DNA from: Mesoplasma seiffertii ATCC 49495
Lineage (GTDB): Bacteria > Bacillota_I > Bacilli_A > Mycoplasmatales > Mycoplasmataceae
Assembly: GCF_000518725.1 (NCBI RefSeq)
Contig: NZ_KI912485.1
Coordinates: 189,866 to 253,865 of the forward strand
Reading direction: 5' to 3'
Length of the DNA: 64,000 nucleotides
Shown here: one piece after another, positions 39,733 to 54,771 of the stretch
How positions within the stretch are numbered: position 1 is the stretch's first letter
How the letters are laid out: each line of letters begins with the position of its first letter
Notes under the pieces: model-generated
The model's input: only the letters and a program-made list of their open reading frames with translations
What the model was told of the DNA's origin: nothing
Database searches by the model: none
Translations under genes and position numbers: made by a program

Positions 39733-41688
39733 CTATTCTTCTATATTTGTAGTTACTACTGGTTCAATAATAATATCAGCAACTTTATCTTCTAATGTAA
39801 ATTTAACATTTTCTTGAATTCATTCTTTACGTTTTTCAGCATCTTCACCCATTAAAGTTCTAAAGGCTTTTTCAGCTGCCAAGGCATCTTCAATTGTTAC
39901 AAGGATTAACTTACGTTTCTCTGGATCCATAGTTGTTTCTCATAGTTGATCAGCATTCATCTCTCCCAACCCTTTATAACGTTGAATTTCAAATTTCTTT
40001 TTAGAACTACGTGAGTATTCTGCTAATTCATCTTCATCTCATAAATAGATAAATGAACGGTCAGAAAACGTCAATTTATATAATGGTGGTAATGCAATAA
40101 AAATATGTTTATTAACAATTAAGTCTTTCATATATCTAAAGAAGAATGTTAATAGCAATGTTTGAATATGTGCCCCATCAGTATCAGCATCGGTCATGAT
40201 AATAACTTTTCCGTAATTGATATCAGCAATTTCAAAGTCAGATCCAATTCCAGCTCCAATCGCGGTAATGATTGTATTAATTTCTTCATTTTTCATTAAA
40301 TCAGCAATCTTTGCTTTCTCCGAGTTAATTACTTTTCCACGTAACGGTAGAATTGCTTGGAAAGTACGATCACGTCCTGATTTAGCACTTCCTCCAGCTG
40401 AATCCCCTTCGACAAGGTATAACTCATTAATTGCCTTTTTACGTCCTTGAGCAGGAGTTAATTTTCCTAACATTGAACGCCCTTGTTTTTTACCCTTAGT
40501 ATCACGAATTGCTTGACGAGCTTTACGGGCTTCTTCACGAGCACGACGAGCCAATAATGCTTTTTCAACAATCTTAGTTGCTGGTACTTTATTTTCAGTT
40601 AATCAAAAGTTAAAGAAATTATAAGTAATTTGTTCGACTGCTGCTTTGGCATCAGGTGTTCCTAACTTACCTTTTGTTTGTCCTTCATATTCAATTAGAT
40701 CTTCAGGAATTTTAACAGTTACAATGGCAATTAACCCTTCGCGTAAATCGTTTGAATCCAAACGCGCTTCTTTTTCTTTAAGAATCTTAGTGTTTTTAGC
40801 ATAGTCATTAATTGCACGAGCTAGTCCGGCTTTAAAACCAGTAATATGAGTTCCCCCATCTCCGGTTTTAACGTTGTTAGCAAATCCCAAAACTGTTTCA
40901 TTATAATCTTCAGTATATTGTAAACAAATTTCGGCTTCAATTCGACGAACATCACCTTTAACAGTTACTGGATCAGTAATCTTTTTAAAGTCTTCTCCTA
41001 GTTCACGAACAAATTCTTGTAATCCATTTTCATAATTGTATTCAACATACTTGTCAGTAGTTTCATCTTTTAAAGTAATCTGTAAGCCTGAATTTAATAA
41101 TGCTGATTCTTTCAAACGTTCAGCAATTGTTGAGAAGCTAAATTTAGTAGTTGTAAAAATTGCATCATCGGGTAAAAAGTTAACTGTAGTTCCAGTTTTA
41201 TAAGTATTTCCTGTATGAGTTAAAGGTTGTGATAACTTCCCTCCGTTTTTAAATTCAATTTCGTTGATTTGTTTATCACGATGAATCGTAACTTTAAATT
41301 TTTTAGATAAAGCATTAACAACTGATGAACCTACTCCGTGTAGTCCTCCTGATGTTTTATAACCGCTTCCTCCAAATTTACCTCCAGCATGAAGCACAGA
41401 AAAAATTACTTCTGGAGTTGGTTTTCCAGTAGCATGCATTCCAATAGGAACTCCACGACCATTATCTGATACTGTCACTGATCCATTTTTTTCTAAAACG
41501 ACATTAATTTCAGTCGCATAACCTGCTAAAGCCTCATCAATTGAATTATCAACAATTTCTCAAACTAAATGATGTAACCCACGTCCATCAGTTGACCCAA
41601 TATACATTCCCGGACGTTTACGAACTGCTTCTAAACCTTCAAGAACCTGAATGGCACTTTCATCATAGACATTTTTAGTATTTGCCAT
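39733..41688 (-). CDS. parE: DNA topoisomerase IV subunit B
   Basis: 651 residues. GHKL ATPase subunit paired with ParC. Landmarks: [22 protein letters not shown] (Asn/Glu of the ATP site), [34 protein letters not shown], the [15 protein letters not shown] and DADTDGAHI with the metal-binding DxD, and the C-terminal [21 protein letters not shown]. The partner parC follows 12 bases later. A methyltransferase-GHKL-Z1-nuclease operon ends just upstream; a hairpin between them shows that it is a separate transcript. Confidence 0.96.
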
Positions 41689-41763
41689 AGTATTCTCCTT
41701 TTCATAACAAAATATCAAAGTTTAAAACTTTGTCTATTTATAAATTATAAATGTAAAAAAGAA

Positions 41764-41796
41764 AATTGTGAAAAAGTTTTCCACTTTTCCACAATT
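41764..41796 (-). terminator. Terminator of the GHKL-Z1 restriction operon
   Basis: AATTGTGGAAAAG pairs with CTTTTTCACAATT (one mismatch) around a short loop, followed by a T-rich stretch. It begins at the stop of the last gene of the operon and precedes parE. Confidence 0.8.
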
Positions 41797-42553
41797 ATAT
41801 TTTAAATTTAAATTTTGCATCTATAGCATTTAGGGGCATTGATAAACCATTTGAAAGATCATTTACATCATAATTTATAATTTCACCTATTTTAAATTTT
41901 GTAGAATATACTTCTGGATATAAATTTTCCAAAAATTCATACTTTTGTTTGTCACTACTTCCCAATAAGTTATACAGTTCAAATACACTTTTTCCTTCAT
42001 TAGATTCAATAACTTCTACAAAAATAAAATCTACATCTTTGCTATTTGTTAACTGTTGATATGACAAATAAACTTCCCTTTTTACTTTAGAAAATGATTT
42101 GACCTCAACAAATTTGTTTTCTTTTGCGTCAAACAAGTCAAAAATTGAATTTTCAAAGTCTTGACTTTTTAATCCCTTTTCTAAAATAATTTTAATTTCT
42201 GCATAAACTGATCTTAGATTTTGAAGAGTTATAATTCGCTTTTTACTTTTTATTAGCTTTGAGATCTCTGACAATGCTTCATTAAGTTTTCACTTTTTAC
42301 TAGCTGTGACAAGAAATATTTTTTCAAGAAGTTCTAGTTCTATATCAGAATTAAACGAAACGGCTTCATATTTAGCGTCTAAAAAATCAACATCACCATA
42401 GTAGTTCATAGATTCACTTGCTAACAAATCAAATTCATTTATATTGTCGTTAATTCTCATTATATAATACTTTTCTTGATCTGATATTTCATTTTCTACT
42501 AACAAATAGTTGTCTACTTTTTTGATTTCTTTCAAATCATATATTTTATTCAT
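41795..42553 (-). CDS. PD-(D/E)XK nuclease (DUF4420-like), restriction operon
   Basis: 252 residues. C-terminal part matches the PD-(D/E)XK pattern: SIFDLFDAKENKFVEVKS (about residues 140-157), with the acidic residue, the turn and E-V-K catalytic triad, then the SYQQLTN helix and DFIFVEV strand. DUF4420 family members (Putative PD-(D/E)XK) belong to the MORC/Z1 restriction-like operons described by comparative genomics. The start overlaps the Z1 gene stop by 8 bases with AGAGGT just before it. It is last in the operon. The nuclease role is inferred from the triad. Confidence 0.75.
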
Positions 42554-43847
42554 TTTTACCTCTGCTCTTATCCTTGTACGTAAATATTATATTTTCATAT
42601 TTTATTTTTTTAATTTCATGTCTTATTTTTTGAACATTGTCACAATTTTTATCAATAAGAAGCTCCATTTTTTCAATTAGATCATCACATTCCAAATAGG
42701 AATCATACACTTTCTGAGAAACATATATTTTCATAAACTTTGCTATATTATTTCTGTACCCAAATCATCTTGCTCTTTGCAGAAGAGTATCAGCCGCATT
42801 TTTTTCAATTGGCTCATTCAACATCACACATGTTAACAAATTATCAAAAGTGTATCCTCTAGAAACTAAATAACCCCCTGAAATTATTGAATGAGTTTCG
42901 TTTTTTCACACGCTTTCGCTTCCATTTAAAACATAATTATTATCCTTAAGCTCCAAAATAATCTTGCGAACTTTGTCATATTCATATTTTTTACTAAAAA
43001 TACTTTCTAAGTCAAAATTTAAAAAAACATCGAGTATTTGGTTTATATTGTCTCGAGCTTTTGAATGATAATCTGTAATTAAGTCATTATTAATCAGTAA
43101 TTGACTTTTTGTTAATTTAGAATCATATATTCTTTCAACATGTGATTTTAAGATCTCCATTCAGATTTTGCTGCTTTTTTCCAAACGTCTTTGCTCTCTT
43201 GTTATTTCAACTACTTCGTACAAATTATTTAAAATAAAAAAATGTGATCCAGTGTAATTCGCATTATGGCGGAGTAAGTGTACATAATCTATGTCACTTG
43301 AGTCGTTTGATAGCAAATCAGCAAATGGTGTTGCAGTAACTCCTATATAGACACCTTTATATAATCTTTCGTACATTTGCTTAAGAAGCTTATAAAGCAT
43401 AGAACCTTCACCATATTTTTGAATATTTTGCCCAGCATAATCTGATTCATCATCAAAAATGGCTACTTTTTTTGGTAAAGAATTGTAAATCATTTCATTT
43501 ACTTTAGTAATTGACTCTTTTGCTTTGAGAGATGAAATAATTATCTTATTATCAGGTATTTTCGTGTAGCTTGTATTTTCAATATCAATTATTTGGTATT
43601 TTTCTGAAAGCTTATGTTTATAAAATCTGTCTCTAGTCTGGTCCAAAAGATTATTTGTTGTTCCTCCTAAAATAACTATCGCATCAAAGTCTTTTTCCAA
43701 TAGGCATTCACACAATTGCATAATAAAATTTGTTTTTCCAGACTGTACTTGTCCAACAACAAGTATTTTTTGCTTTTGCTTCAAATCAATTATTTTTTCA
43801 ATATCTTTAAGAATATTATCCCGAATATTAAAAACTGCTTTTGCCAT
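42546..43847 (-). CDS. Z1-domain ATPase of a GHKL-type restriction operon
   Basis: 433 residues. P-loop VVGQVQSGKTN (residues 30-40) is the exact Z1/superfamily 2 Walker A signature; ILGGTTNNLLDQTRDR follows and FDDESDYAG gives the Walker B. The Z1 signature region GGYLVSRGYT and LLQRARWFGYR (about residues 315-365) carries the arginine-finger-like and aromatic residues. It is more compact than many Z1 proteins. Z1 domains occur in NTP-dependent restriction complexes such as the CglI H subunit, where the motor moves along DNA. The start overlaps the GHKL stop by 3 bases (ATAATGG). The neighbour order is conserved as known for such operons. Confidence 0.88.
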
Positions 43848-45415
43848 TATTGAATAGTAAACCTAACTATGGAATTTAGAATAGAAAGAAAATCGGAACC
43901 TTCTTCTGAATTAATTAAGTCTTTCAAAATTTCAGTCTTAATATCTATTACAGCTAAACCAATTACTGATACCAAAGGATAAAGTACCGACTTTGTATCT
44001 ATCATATTTGCTAAAGTCAAAGGCTTTCATATAGGATGATCTATATTGAAAAAAATTTCAATCTCATTCTTATTTCCTTCTACATGAGAAGCATTAATAA
44101 AATAATTATTCGCATTTTGATCATTTGTAGATATTTCATAAATTTTAAAGTTTAACGCACTTCCATCATTATAAGAAACAAAAGCTCCTGACTTATTAAT
44201 TTTTCAATGAAAATTTGTTTTGGCATTAAGCGTATTTTCAATTTTATTTCCGGCTATATTTGTGTTACCAGAATTAACTTTGGGTTTCTTGCCTATTACC
44301 TCAAAAACTATATCTGCCAAAATTAATAAATCAGCACCTATTTTTTTAATTAATTCATAAAATCTTTCTTTTTCTTTTCCAAAAACAAATTCTCTTTTGT
44401 TATTGTCAGGTTTAAATATTTCACCGAGCTCAACATATCCATATACCCTTTTAATGTTAGTACGAATATATTCTCCAAGTGGTAATGGATTTAAAGGAGC
44501 CAAATTTATTGCTCTTCCACCTTGATATGTTGTAAGCCCATAATTATTAAAAAATTGTTTATTTTGGTCTCTCCCAATACTTCCTTGACTTTGTATACCA
44601 AAAGTAAACATCATATCATGCTCTTTATTTCACTTAACTTGAAAGCCAAATTCTAAAGGCAAATTATTTTGAACATTATAGATAACTTTTTCTTTTAAAT
44701 CTTTTAATATTTTTGTTGATGTAAGCTTATCATTTGCTAATTCAATGATTTTTTCCTTATACTCTTTTTCAATTTTTTGAGCCTTTACTTTTTTGGGTGA
44801 TAAGATATGTTCCTTTTTTTCATTATTTTGAATATATATCAGCTTAATTGATATGTTATTGTCCAAAATATGTTTATAGTATTTTGTAGATAATATAGGT
44901 AAAATATCTCTCTCAAACTCTCTTTTTGAAATAAGCTTGTCTTCGTATATTTTTTCAATAGAAATTTTTGTACCTGTAGACTTTTTTTTGCATGGGAATA
45001 CTTCTCATTCCACTGGATCGTTATAATTGTCAATTTTAGATATTACTATACTAGTTTTATAACCTAAATCTTTTTCTTGCTTTGATTCAATGTATAAATC
45101 CATCCCAAATCAAAATGCACAGTTTTTAAGACCTACGCCATACATGTTTAAACTATTACCACTAGTTTCATTATTCATTTTTATAGCAGAACCCAACAAG
45201 TTTTCATTCATTCCAAAGGCATTGTCTTCAGCGGTTATTTTCTTCAGATCATTGTTTATGCAAATTTCTATTTGCAATTCATTGTCCATTTTATTTTCAA
45301 ATCAAGACCCTATTGAATTATCTATTAATTCAGATAACATAAAATAACTTTTAGAGTTATCATTTTTTTTAGCAAGTAAACTATTATATGGGGTTTTCAT
45401 AAATTGTTTATTCAT
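43847..45415 (-). CDS. GHKL ATPase (MORC/MutL-like) of the restriction operon
   Basis: 522 residues from the ATG at 45415. ATP site: N-box ELIDNSIGSW (Glu29, Asn33), EDNAFGM (Asp64, G68) and the glycine loop MYGVGLKN (G93-G95, Lys97). Then a long helical and strand region, and a late GIQSQGSIGRDQ motif around residue 275. Such GHKL proteins, related to eukaryotic MORC ATPases, sit with a methyltransferase, a Z1 ATPase and a PD-(D/E)XK nuclease. The ATPase likely controls assembly on DNA. An in-frame ATG at 45400 (MKTPYNS) is an alternative start. AAGGAG lies in the methyltransferase 3' end. Confidence 0.86.
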
Positions 45416-45419
45416 TATT

Positions 45420-46247
45420 TTATTGCTCCTTTTTAATTACGTACAACATCTCAACAAACCTATTTTTATTATTTGCATTTGGATTTATACTTCTGTTTGT
45501 TTGAATTTGTATTGCTGTAATAAAACTGCTATCAAATGTTTTGTAAAGCGCCATAGCAAATTCTTTAGAACGCGAATTGGAAATTATAATTGTTGCGCCT
45601 TTTGCAAAAGCATTTTTACATAAGGTAAGCATGTGATAATGTTGTTCTTTTCCAAAAGCAGGATCTGTATATCCCACAAATTTTGAGGTTTCATCAGGAA
45701 AGTAAGGGGGGTCCAAATATACCAAGTCTTTATTATTTACTTTATCCATTATACTTTCATAGCTAATAGAATAAAGCTTTGTATTTTTCAGTAGCTCTGA
45801 AGCCTCCAAAAATTCACTTTCCGTTGGTATATAATACGTCTTATGTTTTCCTACAGGAACATTAAAAATTCCCCTTGAATTTACTCTATAAATTCCGTTA
45901 AATGCAACTTTGTTTAAGTAAAAAAATATTGCTGATTTCCTTAAAGAATTTCCCTTTAAACTATTGTATTCATCTCTAAGTAAATAGTAACTCTCGACGT
46001 CAGTTTTGACTTCAAAAAGATTTTCTATTGACTTCAATAACTGAATAGGATTATCGCGCACGTTCTTATAAAAATTTACTAAATCTTTATTCAAATCATT
46101 CAATATTGCATTTTGAGGATTTAAATGAAAGAAAACAGCTGCAGAACCAGCAAAAGGTTCAATGTATCTTTTATAGTTTTTCAAATATGGATCGATATCT
46201 TTTATAAATCTTCTTTTCCCACCTACTCATTTAACCAATGGCTTCAT
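45420..46247 (-). CDS. D12-class DNA adenine-N6 methyltransferase (Dam type)
   Basis: 275 residues. Methylates adenine in DNA. Motif I VGGKRRF at residues 9-15 with AdoMet loop PFAGSAAVFF, then DPPY (Asp179) as motif IV, and a Dam-type N-x-R-S block (ISNSRSKEF). It is a Dam/DpnM-like alpha-class enzyme; GATC is a likely site but not demonstrated. AAAGGA is nine bases from the ATG at 46247; an earlier ATG at 46256 is too close. It overlaps the udk stop by 17 bases and precedes the GHKL gene. It most likely protects self DNA from the nuclease of this operon. Confidence 0.9.
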
Positions 46248-46887
46248 TGTTTGCATTCCTTTCGTCTACTCAACTTAATATTTTAGTAGCAACTAAGTCA
46301 ATAGCAACTTCATTACCTTCTTGATAAGGTATGATGACATCAGCAAAATCAATACTTGGTGCTACAAAGAAGTCATGCATCGGTTTAACTGTTTCTAAAT
46401 ATTGTTCAATCACTTGATCAGTTGTAAATCCACGTTCACTTATATCTCTAGTTAAACGACGAATGAATCGAACATCATCAGGAGTTTTTATAAACAACTT
46501 TATGTCTCCAAACTTTCTTACTTTATCAACATGTAAGGCAAAAATACCATCAACAATAATTACATCAGCTGGCTCAATACGAATTGTGTCTTCCATTCTT
46601 AACGAAGTAGTAAAATCATATTTAGGTACTTCAATTGTTTGACGCTTTTTAAGTTGAGTTAATTGCTTCACCATCAGATCAATATCCATAATATTTGGGT
46701 GATCAAAATTTAGTTTTTTACGTTCTTCTAAAGTTAACTCCGGAAAGTTTTTATAATAGTTATCCATTGATAAGTAAGTTACTGATTTATCCTTTAAAAT
46801 TACATTTGCAATTCTTTTAGCAACTGTTGTTTTACCAGATGCAGACCCTCCAGCAATTAATATAATTTGGACTGGTTTTATTGACAT
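46231..46887 (-). CDS. udk: Uridine kinase
   Basis: 218 residues. Phosphorylates uridine and cytidine in the salvage pathway. Walker A GGSASGKTT (residues 13-21), DNYYKNF substrate loop, FDHPNIMD, FDGIFALH-like VDGIFALHV, and RRLTRDISERG lid. An extra C-terminal 13 residues beyond the usual length (LSWVDERNANNEAIG) run over the methyltransferase start; this includes a TGA tryptophan. Salvage enzymes fit a mollicute that imports nucleosides. It is flanked on both sides by defence operons. Confidence 0.93.
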
Positions 46888-46965: not shown

Positions 46966-47703
46966 TTAGTCAAAAATGAAGATACTAGTATCTAGTCCGA
47001 TCTTATTAAGAATGATTAAAATAGAATGAATATCTGAATAATCAAAAGAACCAATGACTTCATGAAATTCATGATAACCACAGTTTTCTAATATTTGGGT
47101 TAATTCTTTAATATCAAAAGTTTTGAATATATTATTATTTTTTTTAGCTTTTATGTTAGTAACAAATTCAAAGTCGTCACTATTTTCTATTAAGAAGCTT
47201 AAAATCGTTCCATAAATAAATTCTCTGGCAAAATATTTGTTTTCTCGGGCATTGTAAATTAAATTATTGTAAAGAATTTTTTGTTTCTTTTCTCATTCTT
47301 TATCATTTATAATGATATCTTTTAATAAATAACCGGTTGCATAATAAGAATAATCACTTGTTATTGACTTATTGGCTGTAATAGCTGAAAAAGTTACTAG
47401 GACCTTTAAATATTGTGTCATTGTAGCGTCTTTGACCGAAACAAAGTCATTAACTATTTGAGATTTAGGAGTTAAGTTATATCGTTTATCATTTTCTAAA
47501 ATAACTAATTGATAGTTGTCATCAGATTCTTCTGTATAAAGAATAATTGGTTCTTCCTTGTTAACAATGTTTTTATATCTTTTAAAGTTCGAATCAAAAA
47601 TTTTCAAAATGTTATTAATATTTGTGCTTATATTTCAAAAGCTAAAACTTTCTGCTGCGTTCATGATAGCAATCACTTGGTTAAATTCATTTAAACTAAT
47701 CAT
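46966..47703 (-). CDS. Unknown protein in the methyltransferase-DUF262 unit
   Basis: 245 residues. A mixed helical and strand protein with no motif I recognise. It has an N-terminal helix followed by Asn/Lys-rich segments, then DYSYYATGYLLKDIIIND and a C-terminal LLILN. One TGA tryptophan each at residues 24 and about 138. The start lies within the last codons of the DUF262 gene (8-base overlap), so translation is coupled. It could be an effector or immunity part of the system; nothing in the sequence tests that. Confidence 0.6.
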
Positions 47704-50227
47704 ATTTGTAGATCTCATTTACAATTATTGTGGCCATTGCTTCGGAACGATTTTTAATTTCTTCAATAGAAAAATCAATATCGCTAAATAAGGTCACTTC
47801 TTTGTTATTAACATCCTTAAACTTTAAGTCCTTAGCTGTTCTTGAATTAACGTATTCATTTTTCTTTATCTCGAAGTCTTTATTTTGAAGAGCACTATTG
47901 CTTTTTATATCTAGTCATAAATAATTTCCAATTCTGTTTATATAATTTTCAAAATATTCTTTAACATCTTCATCATTTTTAAATGTATTTGGTTTTCTTT
48001 CTTTAATAGTTTTGTATCACTTAGAATTTTTTAAAGGATTCTGAGGAAAAATGTGCTCAAGAGAAGGATTTTTAAAAATTAAGTTAACACTTCCAGTAAG
48101 TTTAGGGTCAATAATGTTTTGCTCAATTCGTTTTAATAATAACATTGCATCATCTTTTTTATAAAATCTGCCTGAATTAGAAAGTTGATCTTTAAATTGT
48201 TCTTTTGTTGGTGTTTTGAAACTAACTCCAATTTTGATATTTGACTCATTTGGATCTTCTTTTCCAGCTAATCACTTTCTTGTTCTTAAAGCTAAGTTTT
48301 CTTTAAAGTTTACACTTTTATCATTTGCTTCAATGAAATCAAGATATCTAATTAATCCTAGTATTACCCCTTTTAAGGATTTTCCTTGTGTAATTTGATT
48401 TAAAGATATTGATCATTTTTCAATTTCCAAAATAGTTTCTTTTATATACCTATGGTATTTACTATCTATTTCATATTCATTTGTTATACGATTTCAATTT
48501 CCATATACTTCCATTAAATAAAACATAAATGGCATTAATGCATCTTTAAAGTTAAATATATCTAAGTAATTTTCAAATGTATTTAAATAATGTGTTGTAC
48601 TTCCTTTATACTCTTCAGTAATCACGCTTAGATATAAGCTTACATATCCTGATAATTCATCGATAATATTTTTGTATTGATCAAAGCTAATATTTTTATA
48701 ATTTTTCATATATACATTATTGAAGGCCAATAATAAATTTTTACTAGTTTTAGAAATTTCATTTTCATCACGCTTTTTAAAAGTTAAAAAATTGTAAATA
48801 AAGTTTTCTTCACACTTGTGAACATCTTTAATTTTAGGCGAATGAGCAATTACATCTTTATTGCTGAAATCTATTTTACTATTAAAGTATTTAGAAATTT
48901 CATTTTCATAATTTTCAAATTCAGAACTTTCAACTTTTAAGAAAATACTATTTTTAATAAGTTCAAAGGTTGAAAGTTCCATTCCTTTAGAATTAAGGTT
49001 CTCAAAAATTCTCATTTCTTCTTCTTTACTTTTTTTAAAATTAATAACTGCTAAATGAAAGTTATTAGCAAAAGCGCTTCATAGTTTTACTAAATATTCT
49101 TCCTTATTTTCATTATTGGCAAGGTAACCATTAATGATTGTAGTAATCTGAACATAATTATTATTAACATTTGTTTTTTTATAGTTTTTTAATTCGTAGT
49201 TTTTTTCAGTTCTTGTGCGAGTGCTATCTAATATTATTGCTAATGCGTGATGCTCTTTTTCTAAATTGGTAGCATTTTTAATTTTATTTTTTCATACATT
49301 TTGCTTAAATAGTTTATCCAATTCATCAGGAAATTCACCACTAAAATTTTTAATATCTTCTTTAAAAATATCATAAATAGCTTTTGCTATTAGTAATGAA
49401 GAAGTCAGGCGTTGTTGACCGTCAATTAATCTAACTGTATTAACACTTTTTTCACTTGCATTTGAAGTCACAGCAATTGTGCCAAAATATTCTGAAGTGG
49501 CATTTGTTTTTTCAACATTAAAATGAATACTAGAAAGAAGTTCTACAATATTTGCAGTTTCTCATGAGTATTTTCTTTGATATGGTGGAATTACAAATTC
49601 ATAATTTGAAACTAATAATGTCCCTATAGATTCTTTTGATAAGCCTATTGAATAATCATCTGGTAAGTAGTCTGCTTGATTGCTTACTTTAGCTTCTTCA
49701 AATTCATTAGCTTCAATACCTTCTTGAGATTCTGGTAAGTAAATTTGATTAGAGTATGATGTCTTTATATTGATTTTCTCAACAGAAAATTGTCTTGATC
49801 ATAATGTATTATTTAAATAAGCAAGTATTAAGTGCAACTCCTGTATTGCAGAAAGTTTTAGATCAATTGTTAGCGGTTCAATAATTAAGTATTCTTTTTC
49901 CTCTTTAGTTGCAGAATGAACAGATATATTTCGTTTAAATTTAAATTTTTCTACAGCACTTTTCACACCACCAGGTACTTGATTTCCTTCGTCTTTAATG
50001 AAATTAACAATAGCATAAAAGTTAGTTGCTATTGTTGTTTCTCTTATTGAAGACACGAACTTATCTTGTGTTAAATACAATGCCTCTTCCAATACTTTTC
50101 CGATCTCAGTATTAAATTTTGTATCATCATAATTTAAAAAGTTGCTCTCGAATTTAAGAACTTCTTCAAAAAAATCATTTTCGTGTCATTTTTTTAAAAA
50201 ATTAAAGTTTGTTAGTTTTGGTTCCAT
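47696..50227 (-). CDS. DUF262/DUF1524 protein (GmrSD/SspE-like)
   Basis: 843 residues. Residues 1-150 form an uncharacterised helical N-terminal domain (KRNISVHSA). DUF262 about residues 180-430: IPPYQRKYSW and the NTP-binding IDGQQRLTSS (Asp269), then MRIFENLNSKGMELS. DUF1524 about residues 690-790: LEHIFPQNP (His725) and NRIGNYLWLD with the HNH-nuclease signature. Such proteins include GmrSD and SspE, NTP-dependent nucleases that respond to modified DNA. It follows the cytosine methyltransferase by one base, with GAGGAAG in its end, so the two are coupled. Which DNA it cuts is unknown. Confidence 0.85.
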
Positions 50228-50228
50228 T

Positions 50229-51593
50229 TTATTCTTCCTCCTTATATTCCAATTCTGCAACTTTTTTAAAAATTGCAACTAGGACGTTTACAACAATACT
50301 ATTTCCAGCCTGACGATATCGTACTGCCTGAGAAATAAAATCATTTTCAAATATTTTTTTGACATCTTTTTCTTCAAATCCCATTAAAAGATAGGTCTCT
50401 CGTGGTGTTAATAAACGATAGTGCATATTCTTTTTTAAAGGGTTATTTTCATGTTCTTTGATTAGGAGACTATTTTCGATAGAAATCATTCCTGAATTAG
50501 GATTTCGGTCTTGCTTTGTGGTTACAGTGCGAGAGTAGTTCATGTAATAACCATTTGAACCAATTTTTTGGTATTGAGATTGGTACTTTGCTTCTGAAAT
50601 ATTACTTAAGTGCAAAATGGGATTTTCACAATACATTTTGACTCTACTTGGAGTTAAATTTGGAGTCGCCTTAGATGCTTCTTCAAGGTATTCTTGCTTT
50701 GTATAATCAGTTTTTAATACTTGATGCAACTTCTTTTTTATTTTTAATTGGCTAGAAACATTTTTCGGAATTGTCTCAACTTCGATGACCCTATTGTTTT
50801 TTGCAAAACTATCATGGAAGTTCTGATCATCTTCTCCCAAAACACTTAATGCATAAACCCTTGTTCGTGCTTGAGGCGAATCATAATCTTTGGCATTCAA
50901 CTGATACGTTTGAGTGTTGTAACCCAATTCATCGTGTAGAAATGAAAGTCATTCTCTGTAATCATCAATATGCTTGTTTGATAACATGTTACGAACATTT
51001 TCTAAAAGTAAGTATTTTGGTAGCTGATTTAACACTTTTAACTCTCGTAGAATTCTTTCAATTTCTCATAACAAACCGCTTCGTGTTCCAGAACCTTTTT
51101 TCATTCCTTTATTAGAGTTATGAAAGTTACCCGCTGTTGATAAATCTTGACAAGGAAAGGAATATGTAATCAAGTCTACACCCGTCTGGTAACTATTCTT
51201 GGTGCTTTCCTTAGTAATACTATTTATTAGGGATTCCCCAGTGATGTTCAAAATGCTTCCTAAGTTATTACTATTAACCATTGAACTATACAAAATTTCT
51301 TTTGTCGTTCTGGGAAGGCGTTTGACAAACATTTTATCAGCAACTTTTTTAGAATCATTTGATAAATCAAACTTATCAAAAAAATCATTAAGTTCTTTAT
51401 CCTTTAAAGGTTTCGCAATATTTTTGTTATTATGATGAATTGCATTATAGGATATATTCGCTCATATATCTCATTCGCTAGTAGCAACAACTTCATAATC
51501 TAAAAAATCCTGCTTTTTCAAAATTTCTAAAGCTTTATGCTGGGCACCAATTCCAGCGAACGTCTCAAAGACTCTTATTTTTGATTTGCTCAT
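50229..51593 (-). CDS. DNA cytosine-5 methyltransferase (Dcm family)
   Basis: 454 residues. Motif I FETFAGIGA (residues 9-17), motif IV SFPCQDLS with catalytic Cys148, motif VI LLENVRN, motif VIII QARTRVY, motif IX/X RLLTPRETYLLMGFE and RQAGNSIVV. The target-recognition region is long (about residues 260-360), so the recognition site is not predictable. It may be for a site of the CCNGG or GC type, but this is a guess. It is preceded by a hairpin and T16 tract and followed directly by the DUF262 gene. It likely modifies host DNA for this system. Confidence 0.93.
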
Positions 51594-51655
51594 TTTTAGT
51601 TCTCTTTATTAGTTTTTTCTATATTTTTATTGTTATTTATATCCTTTATTCTCTC

Positions 51656-51702
51656 AAAAAAAAAAAAAAAACAAGGCATTCACTTTTTTGTGAATACCTT
51701 GT
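51656..51702 (-). promoter_or_regulatory. Hairpin plus T16 tract upstream of cytosine methyltransferase
   Basis: On the minus strand ACAAGGTATTCAC pairs with GTGAATGCCTTGT around a six-A loop, then 16 T (51656-51671). It is placed after the helicase gene, as terminator, and 63 bases before the methyltransferase start. The long T tract matches those at 3926 and 27865. Confidence 0.75.
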
Positions 51703-51720
51703 TAAATTTTCTTAATAAAA

Positions 51721-54700
51721 TTAAACAATTTTAATTTTAAATTTTGGTGAATTAGGATCATCTAAAATATTTATAATTGCCTCTGGTTTAACTACATTAA
51801 TGAAACGATAAATTGTGTCATTGTAAGTTTTTTCCATTTCAAAAGTATTAAAGAATATATAAAGCTCATTGAAATCTTTACTAATAAACTTTGTTGCTGA
51901 ACCTTTTGATTTTAAATCATACCTTCAATTTGATGGAGGATCTCAGTTTAAATAATTCGCATCTTCATTTATGGTATTTGAGTAGCCATATTTACTCTCT
52001 TTAGAATTTGCTTTAGCGCTAATTGCATAAGAATCATTGCTCTTGTTAGATCAAATACCACTTTGTTGCCCATCTCCATAATAGCGATTATTTATAAACG
52101 GATTCTTAAAAATAACTTTTACTTGGGAATTAGTCAAATTCAAACCCACGAAACTTTTGACATCGTTTGTCAAAATAGAATCACTTGTATTTGATGTCTC
52201 TTTTAGGTAAAGTAATAAAAATTTTATTTCCTGTAGCAGCCGTTGTTGTTCAAAAATATTTGTTCATCCTTTATTTACATCTTGTGCTGCTTCATTCCCA
52301 TTTTTCAAGTTTGGATAAAAATTGATAAAAAACAAGTTGTTGATTATCTCGTTATCAATTCTTTGTTGTTTTTCAATAATATTTATAAAAGCATTTATAA
52401 GATGAGTATTATTAACGATCGAAAAGTTTCTTAAAATTGTGTTAGATCTAGAATCTAATATCTTGTTCTTTTGATCATGGTTTCAGTATGTTTGCTTGCC
52501 ATAAAACTTAAATGGCTCTTGTAGTATGAAATCAAAAAATTCCTTATAGTTTTCATAGGTAAAATCTTTGCTTCGATATTCACTTAATAAATCTTTTGTT
52601 TTGTAAAGTTTGATTCTTTTTTCCAAAGCAGAAATGATTTTTTCTTTAGACATTTTATCAAAGTAAAATACGCTATTACCTGGTAATGAGTAACTTATAT
52701 TGTCAGCGTAATGAGTAATTTGATCTAAAATTTCTCTTTCTGCATTATTTTGCATAAAAATTTTAATCGGAATAACTGGGTCGTAAGTTTTATTAGTTTT
52801 CATATCAATATTATTTACAAAATCAAATACTTGCAGTTTTTTATCTATTGTTTTTCTAAGACCTCTACCAAGTTGTTGAATATATATTAACGGTGATGAC
52901 GTTGGTCTTAAGAACAAAATGGCATTGATTTCAGGAATGTCAATTCCTTCATTAAGAATATCTCTTACTACTAAATATTCTATTTTTCCATCTTTGAATT
53001 TTTGAATAATATCTTTGCGTTCTTCTTTACCAATAATAACTTTTTTATTATCTTCGTTTTCAGTATAGCTAACTAAAAACTCTGCCAACAATCCCTTTTG
53101 TTTTAGGGTTGTTGTAATGTCTTTGGCATGCTCAACAGAAGCAGCAAATAAGACAACTTTTGGTTTTTCAATAATAGGAATAATTTTTTCCTCGATTGTT
53201 TTAAATATGAATTCGTTTCTTTCATGTGTATTTAAGGCTTGCGTTAGTGCTGCTTCATTATTGATATCAACACCCTGCATTGAACTTTCATCGTTTACAA
53301 AATAGTAATCAAAGTCAGCCAAGTATCCTTTGTCAATTGCATCAAATAAACGAATTTCCTCTACATATGGTAGGCCAAAATAATTTGCAACGTTTATACC
53401 ATCTGTTCTTTCTGGGGTAGCTGTCATTCCAATGATTTGCTCAGTTTGATTTTCTAATAAGTTAAATATTTCTTTAAATGTTCTTGCTTGTACATGATGT
53501 GCTTCATCAAAAATCGCAATATCAAATTTTTTATTTAACAAAAAAGTCTTATTATTTCTTAAAGTTTCTATATTTGTAAAAATAAATTCTTGTTCATCAT
53601 AGTCATTCGCTTTATTTTTGGAATCATAAAACTGAAAAATATTATCATTTGATAATTCTGCATTTACCTTTTTGAAAGTCAAAATTGTTTGATCTAATAT
53701 CTCCTTATTAGGGGCAATATAAATTAGTCGTGGCAATTCAAATTCATCTTTGGGAATATATCTTTCAACAAAGCTTGCGATTGTAAAAGTCTTACCTGTA
53801 CCTGTAGCCATTACTATTAAATGCTTGTTAATATTTTTAGATATTCTGTCAAATAGATTATTTACCACAAACTCTTGATACGGAAAAAGTTTTTGCCTTT
53901 CATTTTTAAAAATATTCGCTTCTAATTGCTTATCTAGATCAGTACTTTCTCGTTTAAAATCAGAGATAAGCTGTTGTTTTTGAATAATTATATTAATTTT
54001 TTCAGAATCTGTAATATTTATTAGAGAATGATCACTTCACAATTCTTCAAAGTTGCTCATAATTTTGTCAAATAATTTTTTTTCTTGAAACTGACTAATC
54101 TTTAGTGATGATTCACTCCCTGTTAAAATTCCAGTCTTGGTAAAATTACTTGATCCAACATACGCACTAGAAAAATTATTTTCCTTTTCAAATATATAAA
54201 TTTTTGAGTGAATCCTATTTGAATTATTACTAAAGCTATTTTCGATTTTAACGTCAACACGCTCCAAGTAATCAGACTTAAGTTTGGCTAAACCAATTAA
54301 ATCTAAGTATTTGGATTCCCCATTATATGTCGTTGTAATTATCGATACTGCAAGTTGACTATTTATTTCCAAGTACCCTCGAAGTATATTGACCCCATAG
54401 GCGCTTAAAAAAGGCACAATTAAAAATAAATGTTTTGTAGAACTGATTTCCTGGTTTAAATGAACTTGAAGTTTCTTATCAATAAACTCATTTAAACTTC
54501 ACGCTTTTTGATTTGTATTGTCAGTGCTTGATTTAACTCTTTTATTAATAAACTCAATTTCATTATTCAAGTTGTTTAAAAAATTAACCTTTGATGAAAT
54601 ATCTAAATGTTCGATTTGTTCATATAAATAGTTATTGAACTGATTTATTAATCATTTATTTACATCAGCATCTTCACTCATCTTATCTAAGCTTTCTAAC

Positions 54701-54771
54701 GCAAAGTCCTTATTGTAAACTTCGTTTTTTAACGCAATTAAATCTATAACCTTACTAATTTTTTTACTCAT
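51721..54771 (-). CDS. PLD-nuclease/DEAD helicase/DUF3427-like restriction protein
   Basis: 1016 residues. Residues 110-240: phospholipase D-like nuclease with H188-x-K190 and GSSNFT, the HKD half-site. A superfamily 2 motor follows: Walker A MATGTGKTFT (Lys327), DEAHHVQ at about 421, GMTATPERTDG, motif VI QQLGRGLRKT about residue 640. Residues 700-1016 have an uncharacterised C-terminal domain in the position of DUF3427. The order PLDc-ResIII-Helicase_C-DUF3427 is a known bacterial family thought to be a restriction or repair enzyme. It is transcribed toward the methyltransferase but followed by a hairpin. An AAAGGAC site precedes the ATG. Confidence 0.87.

What the first reader, a model, noticed from the sequence alone, without database searches (positions are those of the whole stretch)
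41795..46247. Compact MORC-like GHKL/Z1/PD-(D/E)XK/Dam restriction operon
Four overlapping or abutting genes encode adenine methyltransferase (DPPY), GHKL ATPase (ELIDNS, EDNAFGM, GVGLKN), Z1 ATPase (VVGQVQSGKT, QRARWFGYR) and DUF4420-like nuclease (EVK). Comparative-genomics work (Iyer, Aravind and colleagues) linked this set to the origin of eukaryotic MORC ATPases. The mechanism remains poorly known, and this version is short: the Z1 protein has only 433 residues. It is a good minimal model for a MORC-type bacterial immune system.
Basis: partly seen in the sequence, partly recalled or inferred. Interest (0 to 1): 0.8.

Follow-up and report, generated by a model that had tools for sequence, protein, structure and literature searches.

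The report
Pared-down MORC-type restriction operon in Mollicute
A small wall-less bacterium carries a four-gene DNA-restriction system built around a relative of the MORC proteins that silence genes in animals and plants; it is a stripped-down, methyltransferase-swapped version of a known but little-tested kind of bacterial immune system.

Summary
Under genetic code 4, four tightly packed genes encode a Dam-family adenine methyltransferase, a GHKL ATPase, a 433-residue Z1 SF2 motor and a PD-(D/E)XK nuclease. They match the third MORC operon type predicted by Iyer et al. 2008. The predicted GHKL structure ranks eukaryotic SMCHD1/MORC above Hsp90 and MutL. The nuclease misses the Pfam DUF4420 profile, but profile-profile comparison, its catalytic residues and its predicted fold place it there.

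"Short" is a lineage trait. Eleven Mollicute Z1 proteins lacking about 290 C-terminal residues form one clade; about 720 residues is usual elsewhere. In 80 related loci from bacteria and archaea, 72 have a cytosine methyltransferase next to the GHKL gene and none a Dam homologue within five genes. The Dam version was found intact in one other species, with a remnant in a third. Other short-clade members carry cytosine, N6/N4 or DndC-type modification genes.

The udk-parE site holds different defence genes in three congeneric species.

Most likely it is an ATP-dependent restriction-modification system with a GATC-like methylation mark. Activity and specificity are untested. New variant of a known kind.

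The parts
45420..46247 (-). Dam-family N6-adenine DNA methyltransferase (275 aa; alternative start 46256 gives 278 aa). EcoDam GATC-contact residues K9, N120, R124, P134 conserved, L122 to I, Y119 to F, Y138 to H (numbering of the 278-aa form coincides with EcoDam); catalytic DPPY
   Evidence: PF02086 8.5e-49; TIGR00571 240 bits over cut-off 114.85; DpnM 2dpm 7e-43 and EcoDam 2g1p 7e-39 with alignment
43847..45415 (-). MORC-like GHKL+S5 ATPase (522 aa): E29/N33 box, D64xxxG68, G93xG95xK97, T149, K340, S5 signature GLTTYQGGRAI at 293-303
   Evidence: PF13589 2.1e-9; those residues conserved across 56 relatives, most of them invariant; model best matches SMCHD1 Z 24.6 and MORC3/2/4 Z 20.6-22.6, Hsp90 19.5, MutL 18.1; motif check
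42546..43847 (-). Short DEAD-Z1 SF2 motor (433 aa): Walker A GQVQSGKT (32-39), DDExD (132-136), TATPFA, GGYLVSRGYTF, DTLLQRARWFGYR; lacks about 290 aa of C-terminal domain
   Evidence: PF10593 1.3e-17 and ResIII 2.4e-7; PADLOC Helicase_II 7.6e-29; alignment; tree
41795..42553 (-). PD-(D/E)XK nuclease, distant DUF4420 relative (252 aa): E119, D139, E150-x-K152, Q167; nuclease core about residues 90-252
   Evidence: invariant catalytic columns; hhalign E 3.7e-7 to DUF4420 members; AlphaFold2 model, top structural matches nearly all PD-(D/E)XK enzymes
41764..41796 (-). Terminator-like hairpin directly after the nuclease stop; conserved upstream of parE in congeneric species
46231..46887 (-). udk (uridine kinase): chromosomal flank, probably co-transcribed with the operon; its own terminator, present in G329 and G327, is missing here and its C-terminus is extended into the operon
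39733..41718 (-). parE: chromosomal flank on the other side of the hotspot

Best explanation
The operon encodes an ATP-dependent restriction-modification system of the prokaryotic MORC / SF2-Z1 / PD-(D/E)XK type. The Dam-like enzyme methylates adenine in the host's recognition sites, most probably GATC. On incoming DNA that lacks the mark, the MORC-like GHKL protein dimerises on ATP binding and clamps or loops DNA; the DEAD-Z1 protein acts as a DNA translocase that links distant sites or pulls DNA towards the nuclease; the PD-(D/E)XK protein cuts. This is a Mollicute variant in which the Z1 motor has lost its C-terminal domain, so it is reduced to the part that in the CglI enzyme dimerises (Z1) and binds the nuclease (DEAD), and in which the usual C5-cytosine methyltransferase has been replaced by a Dam-type one. 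Shown here: gene set, intact catalytic motifs, folds by profile or model, conservation as a unit in a second genus, shortness of Z1 as a clade trait, methyltransferase exchange relative to the common arrangement, and a defence hotspot between udk and parE. Inferred: GATC specificity, the clamp/translocation/cleavage order, that unmethylated DNA is the trigger, and that the domain was lost rather than never gained.
For: Gene set and motifs. The Z1 sequence DTLLQRARWFG fits the DThhQXuRhFG motif, and the nuclease fits the E-D-ExK motif, of Iyer's third MORC operon type (PMC2292703). The GHKL model resembles the SMCHD1/MORC ATPase modules most. The nuclease model resembles PD-(D/E)XK restriction enzymes and aligns with DUF4420 proteins occupying the same gene position. 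The same four genes are co-conserved in G332 at 56/51/43/37% identity, with decayed Dam and nuclease fragments in G141. In 80 relatives GHKL always precedes Z1, and the nuclease follows directly in 71. The sister-species site holds other restriction genes. Dam residues known (own knowledge) to read GATC in EcoDam are mostly kept. GATC occurs 161 times against 170 expected in the window, so it is not avoided, which is compatible with protection by methylation. CglI's DEAD-Z1 subunit translocates DNA and needs ATP for cleavage (PMC4267653, PMC5737866).
Against: No restriction, methylation or anti-phage activity has been measured. The GHKL S5 signature deviates at one hydrophobic position (GLTTYQGGRAI). 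No target-recognition domain other than the methyltransferase's is visible, so it is unclear how the restriction side finds unmodified sites. GATC specificity rests on a few residues, and some near the contact site differ from EcoDam (Y119F, L122I, Y138H). The GATC count cannot tell protection from absence of any GATC-specific nuclease. The Z1 protein was not modelled.
Confidence: 0.72

Rival explanations
1. The Dam gene is only a protective or orphan methyltransferase, and the GHKL-Z1-nuclease module is a modification-independent defence effector that senses DNA topology, ends or replication intermediates, so the methylation mark does not decide self from non-self.
For: The GHKL-Z1-nuclease core stays constant while the modification gene changes between C5, Dam, N6/N4 and DndC types, and one short-clade locus (L035) has no recognisable modification gene beside it. 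MZA-type relatives are catalogued as anti-phage systems rather than classical R-M (NCBIfam/PADLOC MzaC). No separate target-recognition domain was found on the restriction side.
Against: A C5 methyltransferase lies within five genes in 75 of 80 relatives; here the Dam gene is nearly flush with the GHKL gene, and the same Dam partner is kept in G332.
Confidence: 0.17
2. A type IV-like arrangement: the module cuts DNA methylated at foreign sites, and the Dam is unrelated to self-protection.
For: Some top structural matches of the nuclease are enzymes that act on methylated DNA (NhoI, Eco15I, DpnI).
Against: Those matches share only the common PD-(D/E)XK core (Z under 9). A nuclease activated by GATC methylation could not coexist with an adjacent active GATC methylase.
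Confidence: 0.05
3. The operon is a decaying or silent relic with no present activity.
For: Relics of this operon exist (G141, broken Dam and nuclease fragments, L064), and it shows no clear promoter of its own apart from read-through from udk.
Against: All four frames are intact, the invariant catalytic residues are present, the overlaps are exact, and catalytic columns are conserved while overall identity to G332 is only moderate.
Confidence: 0.06

Closest known systems
Prokaryotic MORC restriction-modification operons, third type (Iyer, Abhiman and Aravind 2008, PMC2292703)
   Same: GHKL-S5 ATPase of MORC type, SF2 helicase with DThhQXuRhFG (Z1) motif, RE-fold protein with E-D-ExK, DNA methylase; that survey lists Mycoplasma penetrans among its species and notes rare adenine methylases
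   Different: Here the methylase is Dam type, the Z1 protein lacks a C-terminal domain and the nuclease is about 60 aa shorter and too diverged for Pfam DUF4420
MZA system (MzaC family: NCBIfam NF041933, PADLOC MzaC)
   Same: MutL/GHKL plus Z1 plus a small PD-(D/E)XK-type protein
   Different: No AIPR gene here, Z1 half as long, MzaC model 49.5 bits against a cut-off of 1500; MZA-like Z1 proteins of 843-934 aa form a separate clade
CglI / NgoAVII restriction systems (DEAD-Z1 subunit with PLD nuclease; PMC4267653, PMC5737866)
   Same: DEAD-Z1 motor in an ATP-dependent R-M system
   Different: CglI has a C5 methylase, a PLD-B3 nuclease, a C-terminal motor domain and no GHKL protein
DpnII/Dam-family methyltransferases (DpnM 2dpm, EcoDam 2g1p)
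   Same: DpnM 7e-43, EcoDam 7e-39; GATC-contact residues mostly kept
   Different: Coupled to a MORC/Z1/nuclease module instead of a DpnII-type endonuclease or standing alone
Eukaryotic MORC2/3/4 and SMCHD1 ATPases
   Same: GHKL-S5 ATPase module fold, conserved lysine, S5 signature (one deviation)
   Different: No CW domain or coiled coil identified; works beside a motor and a nuclease

Membership tests
Iyer third-type MORC R-M operon | GHKL ATPase with the four ATP-binding motifs plus S5 domain | tested here: met
   PF13589 2.1e-9; conserved E29, D32, N33, D64, G68, G95, K97, T149, K340; GHKL-S5 fold by model
Iyer third-type MORC R-M operon | MORC-specific GhXhhpXXRhl motif in the S5 domain | tested here: inconclusive
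   GLTTYQGGRAI fits 10 of 11 positions (Thr at one hydrophobic position); 95 of 101 relatives fit strictly; MORC/SMCHD1 are the top structural matches
Iyer third-type MORC R-M operon | SF2 helicase with DThhQXuRhFG motif | tested here: met
   DTLLQRARWFG; PF10593 1.3e-17, ResIII 2.4e-7
Iyer third-type MORC R-M operon | RE-fold protein with E-D-ExK | tested here: met
   E119, D139, E150-x-K152; PD-(D/E)XK fold by model
Iyer third-type MORC R-M operon | Linked DNA methylase (mostly cytosine, rarely adenine) | tested here: met
   Dam family TIGR00571 240 bits, 4 bp from the GHKL gene
DUF4420 (PF14390) | Match to the Pfam profile above its cut-off | tested here: not met
   No hit for P0001 or its orthologue; related only by profile-profile comparison, E 3.7e-7
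MZA system | AIPR gene in the operon | tested here: not met
   No AIPR hit in the operon or in the neighbouring genes 46966-54771
MZA system | MzaC-type Z1 protein over the curated cut-off | tested here: not met
   49.5 bits against 1500; long Z1 is a separate clade
Dam methyltransferase | TIGR00571 above cut-off and DPPY catalytic motif | tested here: met
Dam methyltransferase | GATC specificity | not testable with these tools
   Contact residues K9, N120, R124, P134 kept, L122 to Ile, Y119 to Phe, Y138 to His; needs a methylome
Restriction-modification system | Restriction of unmodified DNA and protection by the methylase | not testable with these tools
   Needs expression experiments

The most novel reading that the evidence does not exclude
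In Mollicutes, loss of the Z1 C-terminal domain produced a compact MORC-motor-nuclease chassis that no longer depends on cytosine methylation and has been re-coupled several times to different DNA marks: 5mC, Dam-type 6mA, an N6/N4 methylase, and a DndC-type sulfur gene that overlaps the MORC gene in genomes where no DndD was found. The lost domain would then be the part that ties the ancestral system to its cytosine mark.
Probability: 0.25. Interest if true: 0.65.

Novelty: new variant of a known kind. Interest (0 to 1): 0.45.

Why it matters
Prokaryotic MORC systems are the proposed kin from which eukaryotic MORC silencing ATPases arose, and I found no biochemical test of one in the papers searched. 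This operon has about the smallest set found here (methylase, MORC clamp, bare DEAD-Z1 motor, small nuclease), about 4.5 kb in all, with a methylation mark that can be predicted and is easy to switch on and off in dam-plus and dam-minus E. coli. That makes the old question of what a MORC ATPase does in restriction directly testable. The comparison with longer relatives also defines a domain that such a system can do without.

Tried and rejected
(1) Direct DUF4420 assignment: rejected at Pfam level, kept at profile-profile and fold level. (2) Filing under MZA: rejected, no AIPR, MzaC score far under cut-off, separate Z1 clade. (3) genome-contig search with P0003 alone: no relatives confirmed; the Z1 alignment worked. 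(4) Solved-structure sequence searches: nothing for the nuclease family, only a hit at E 0.91 for Z1, none for the GHKL protein alone and one weak hit to an Hsp90 protein for its family. (5) P0003 on plasmid or phage records: no match. IMG/VR viral contigs hold 30 Z1 relatives, none with a Dam hit by my profiles; some short Z1 frames there stop at contig ends or are split. (6) Canonical phosphorothioation beside DndC: no DndD found (control genomes rang only below cut-off); the DndE search is uninformative because its control rang nowhere. (7) GHKL tree: shorts cluster together but with weak support (63/35) and long branches, so co-inheritance of GHKL and Z1 is likely, not proven. (8) The first Z1 tree used columns of the missing domain; it was rebuilt on core columns only. 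(9) The 80-locus survey was retrieved with the pattern QRARWFGY and annotated with my own profiles, so its fractions describe close relatives of this Z1 type, not all Z1 proteins.
Full report
What is there. The window comes from a 978-kb genome that reads TGA as tryptophan. Between udk (46231-46887) and parE (39733-41718), all on the minus strand, lie four genes: a Dam-family methyltransferase (45420-46247), a GHKL ATPase (43847-45415), a Z1 protein (42546-43847) and a 252-aa protein (41795-42553). They overlap or abut one another. The last stop codon is followed at once by a terminator-like hairpin (41796-41764) that is conserved upstream of parE in congeneric species; the terminator-like sequence that follows udk in those species is missing here, so udk and the four genes probably form one transcript.

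What the proteins are. The methyltransferase scores 240 bits with the Dam family model (cut-off 114.85) and aligns with DpnM and EcoDam over most of its length; K9, N120, R124 and P134 of EcoDam are kept, L122 is Ile, Y119 is Phe and Y138 is His. That these residues read GATC is from my own knowledge of the EcoDam structures. The GHKL protein keeps the ATP-binding residues. Its AlphaFold2 model (mean pLDDT 74.8) matches SMCHD1 (Z 24.6) and MORC3, MORC2 and MORC4 (Z 20.6-22.6) before Hsp90 (19.5) and MutL (18.1). The MORC signature in the S5 domain is present with one deviating position. The Z1 protein has the SF2 motifs, PF10593 at 1.3e-17 and ResIII at 2.4e-7. The 252-aa protein has no Pfam family above threshold, but its E119, D139, E150-x-K152 and Q167 are conserved in DUF4420 proteins from the same operon position. 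Profile-profile comparison gives E 3.7e-7, and the confident part of its model (residues 90-252) finds almost only PD-(D/E)XK nucleases; the individual scores are modest (best Z 8.6), so the weight lies on the consistency of the list and on the catalytic residues.

Relatives. Among 60 genomes of the same family, one other species (G332, another genus) has the same four genes at 56, 51, 43 and 37% identity (Dam, GHKL, Z1, nuclease), and a third (G141) has broken Dam and nuclease fragments. A scan of one genome per species with a Z1 alignment returned 80 loci from many bacterial phyla and archaea. In all 80 a GHKL gene directly precedes Z1; in 71 the nuclease directly follows; in 72 a C5-cytosine methyltransferase directly precedes the GHKL gene; none has a Dam hit within five genes; the median Z1 length is 720 aa. 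This set was retrieved by a motif and annotated with profiles I built, so it describes the near kin of this Z1 type.

What is unusual. First, the Z1 protein ends about 70 residues after motif VI, whereas typical relatives continue for about 290 more residues. A tree on core columns only places all 11 short Z1 proteins (431-520 aa), all from Mollicutes, on one side of a branch (100/99 support) apart from the mid-length ones and from the long ones of MZA type. Loss of the domain is the simpler reading, since mid-length forms are spread over bacteria and archaea, but the tree is unrooted. Second, the short clade has exchanged its modification gene: Dam here and in G332, C5 in L032 and L037, an N6/N4 methylase in L066, a 616-aa protein with a D12 domain downstream in L033, DndC above its curated cut-off in L067 and L068 and below it in L034, and a PAPS-reductase-like gene in L069. 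In L067 and L068 the DndC gene overlaps the GHKL gene; no DndD was found in those genomes.

A hotspot. In G329, the sister species whose parE is 96% identical, the same site holds an HNH gene, a C5 methyltransferase, udk, another HNH-like gene, a GHKL gene and a 718-aa Z1. In G327 it holds a C5 methyltransferase, a nuclease, an 822-aa GHKL and a 586-aa Z1 upstream of udk, and two other genes between udk and parE. In G328 a C5 methyltransferase and an HNH-like protein stand before parE. Different MORC/Z1 systems have therefore occupied one chromosomal site within one genus, as expected for exchangeable defence genes.

How it most likely works. Iyer et al. (PMC2292703) predicted from gene neighbourhoods that MORCs in such operons loop DNA between the recognition and cleavage sites, with the helicase and RE-fold nuclease acting together; this operon meets their description. 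The only biochemically studied motor of related domain make-up that I found is that of CglI: its isolated Z1 part dimerises, its DEAD part binds the nuclease, the complex hydrolyses ATP on DNA with unmethylated sites, translocates and is proposed to cut when complexes collide (PMC4267653, PMC5737866). The short Z1 protein corresponds to the DEAD-Z1 part alone. I therefore propose methylation-marked self, ATP-driven clamping by the MORC protein, translocation by DEAD-Z1 and cutting by the small nuclease. The gene set, motifs, folds and conservation are shown here; the order of events, the trigger and GATC specificity are inferred.

Verdict. The finding is correct in substance. It is a new variant of a known kind: one of the smallest MORC-type restriction operons seen here and, among close relatives, one of very few with a Dam-type mark. 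Its value is as a compact, easily switched experimental system; nothing about its activity has been measured.

Noticed in passing
window 46966-54771: A second restriction locus directly upstream of udk: a GmrSD/DUF262-type protein (47696-50278), a C5-cytosine methyltransferase (50229-51593), a PLD-domain SF2 helicase with NgoFVII-type nuclease similarity (51721-54771) and an unknown 250-aa protein (46966-47718, no Pfam, NCBIfam or PADLOC hit).
   Followed up: partly
L067:6656-12233 and L068:4822-10414: DndC (TIGR03183 above its curated cut-off) overlaps the start of a MORC-type GHKL gene followed by a short Z1 and a nuclease; no DndD was found in these genomes. A possible sulfur-linked modification partner for a MORC restriction module.
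   Followed up: partly
L159:7237-15570, L160:9894-12093, L161:2192-12817: The udk-parE interval carries different defence genes in three species of the window's genus, including two other GHKL-Z1 systems: a defence hotspot.
   Followed up: partly
L159:10600-15570, L039:5039-9936, L041:4813-9668: A sub-branch of Mollicute GHKL plus mid-length Z1 operons has an HNH-like protein beside the GHKL gene, and no DUF4420-type gene by my profile directly after Z1.
   Followed up: no
L033:4835-12620: A short-Z1 operon flanked by an AIPR gene and a 616-aa protein with a C-terminal Dam-type domain: a mixture of MZA and Dam features.
   Followed up: no
L161:5202-9433: An 822-aa GHKL protein with a 586-aa Z1, intermediate in length; its GHKL falls near the short clade in the tree but on a very long branch.
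   Followed up: no
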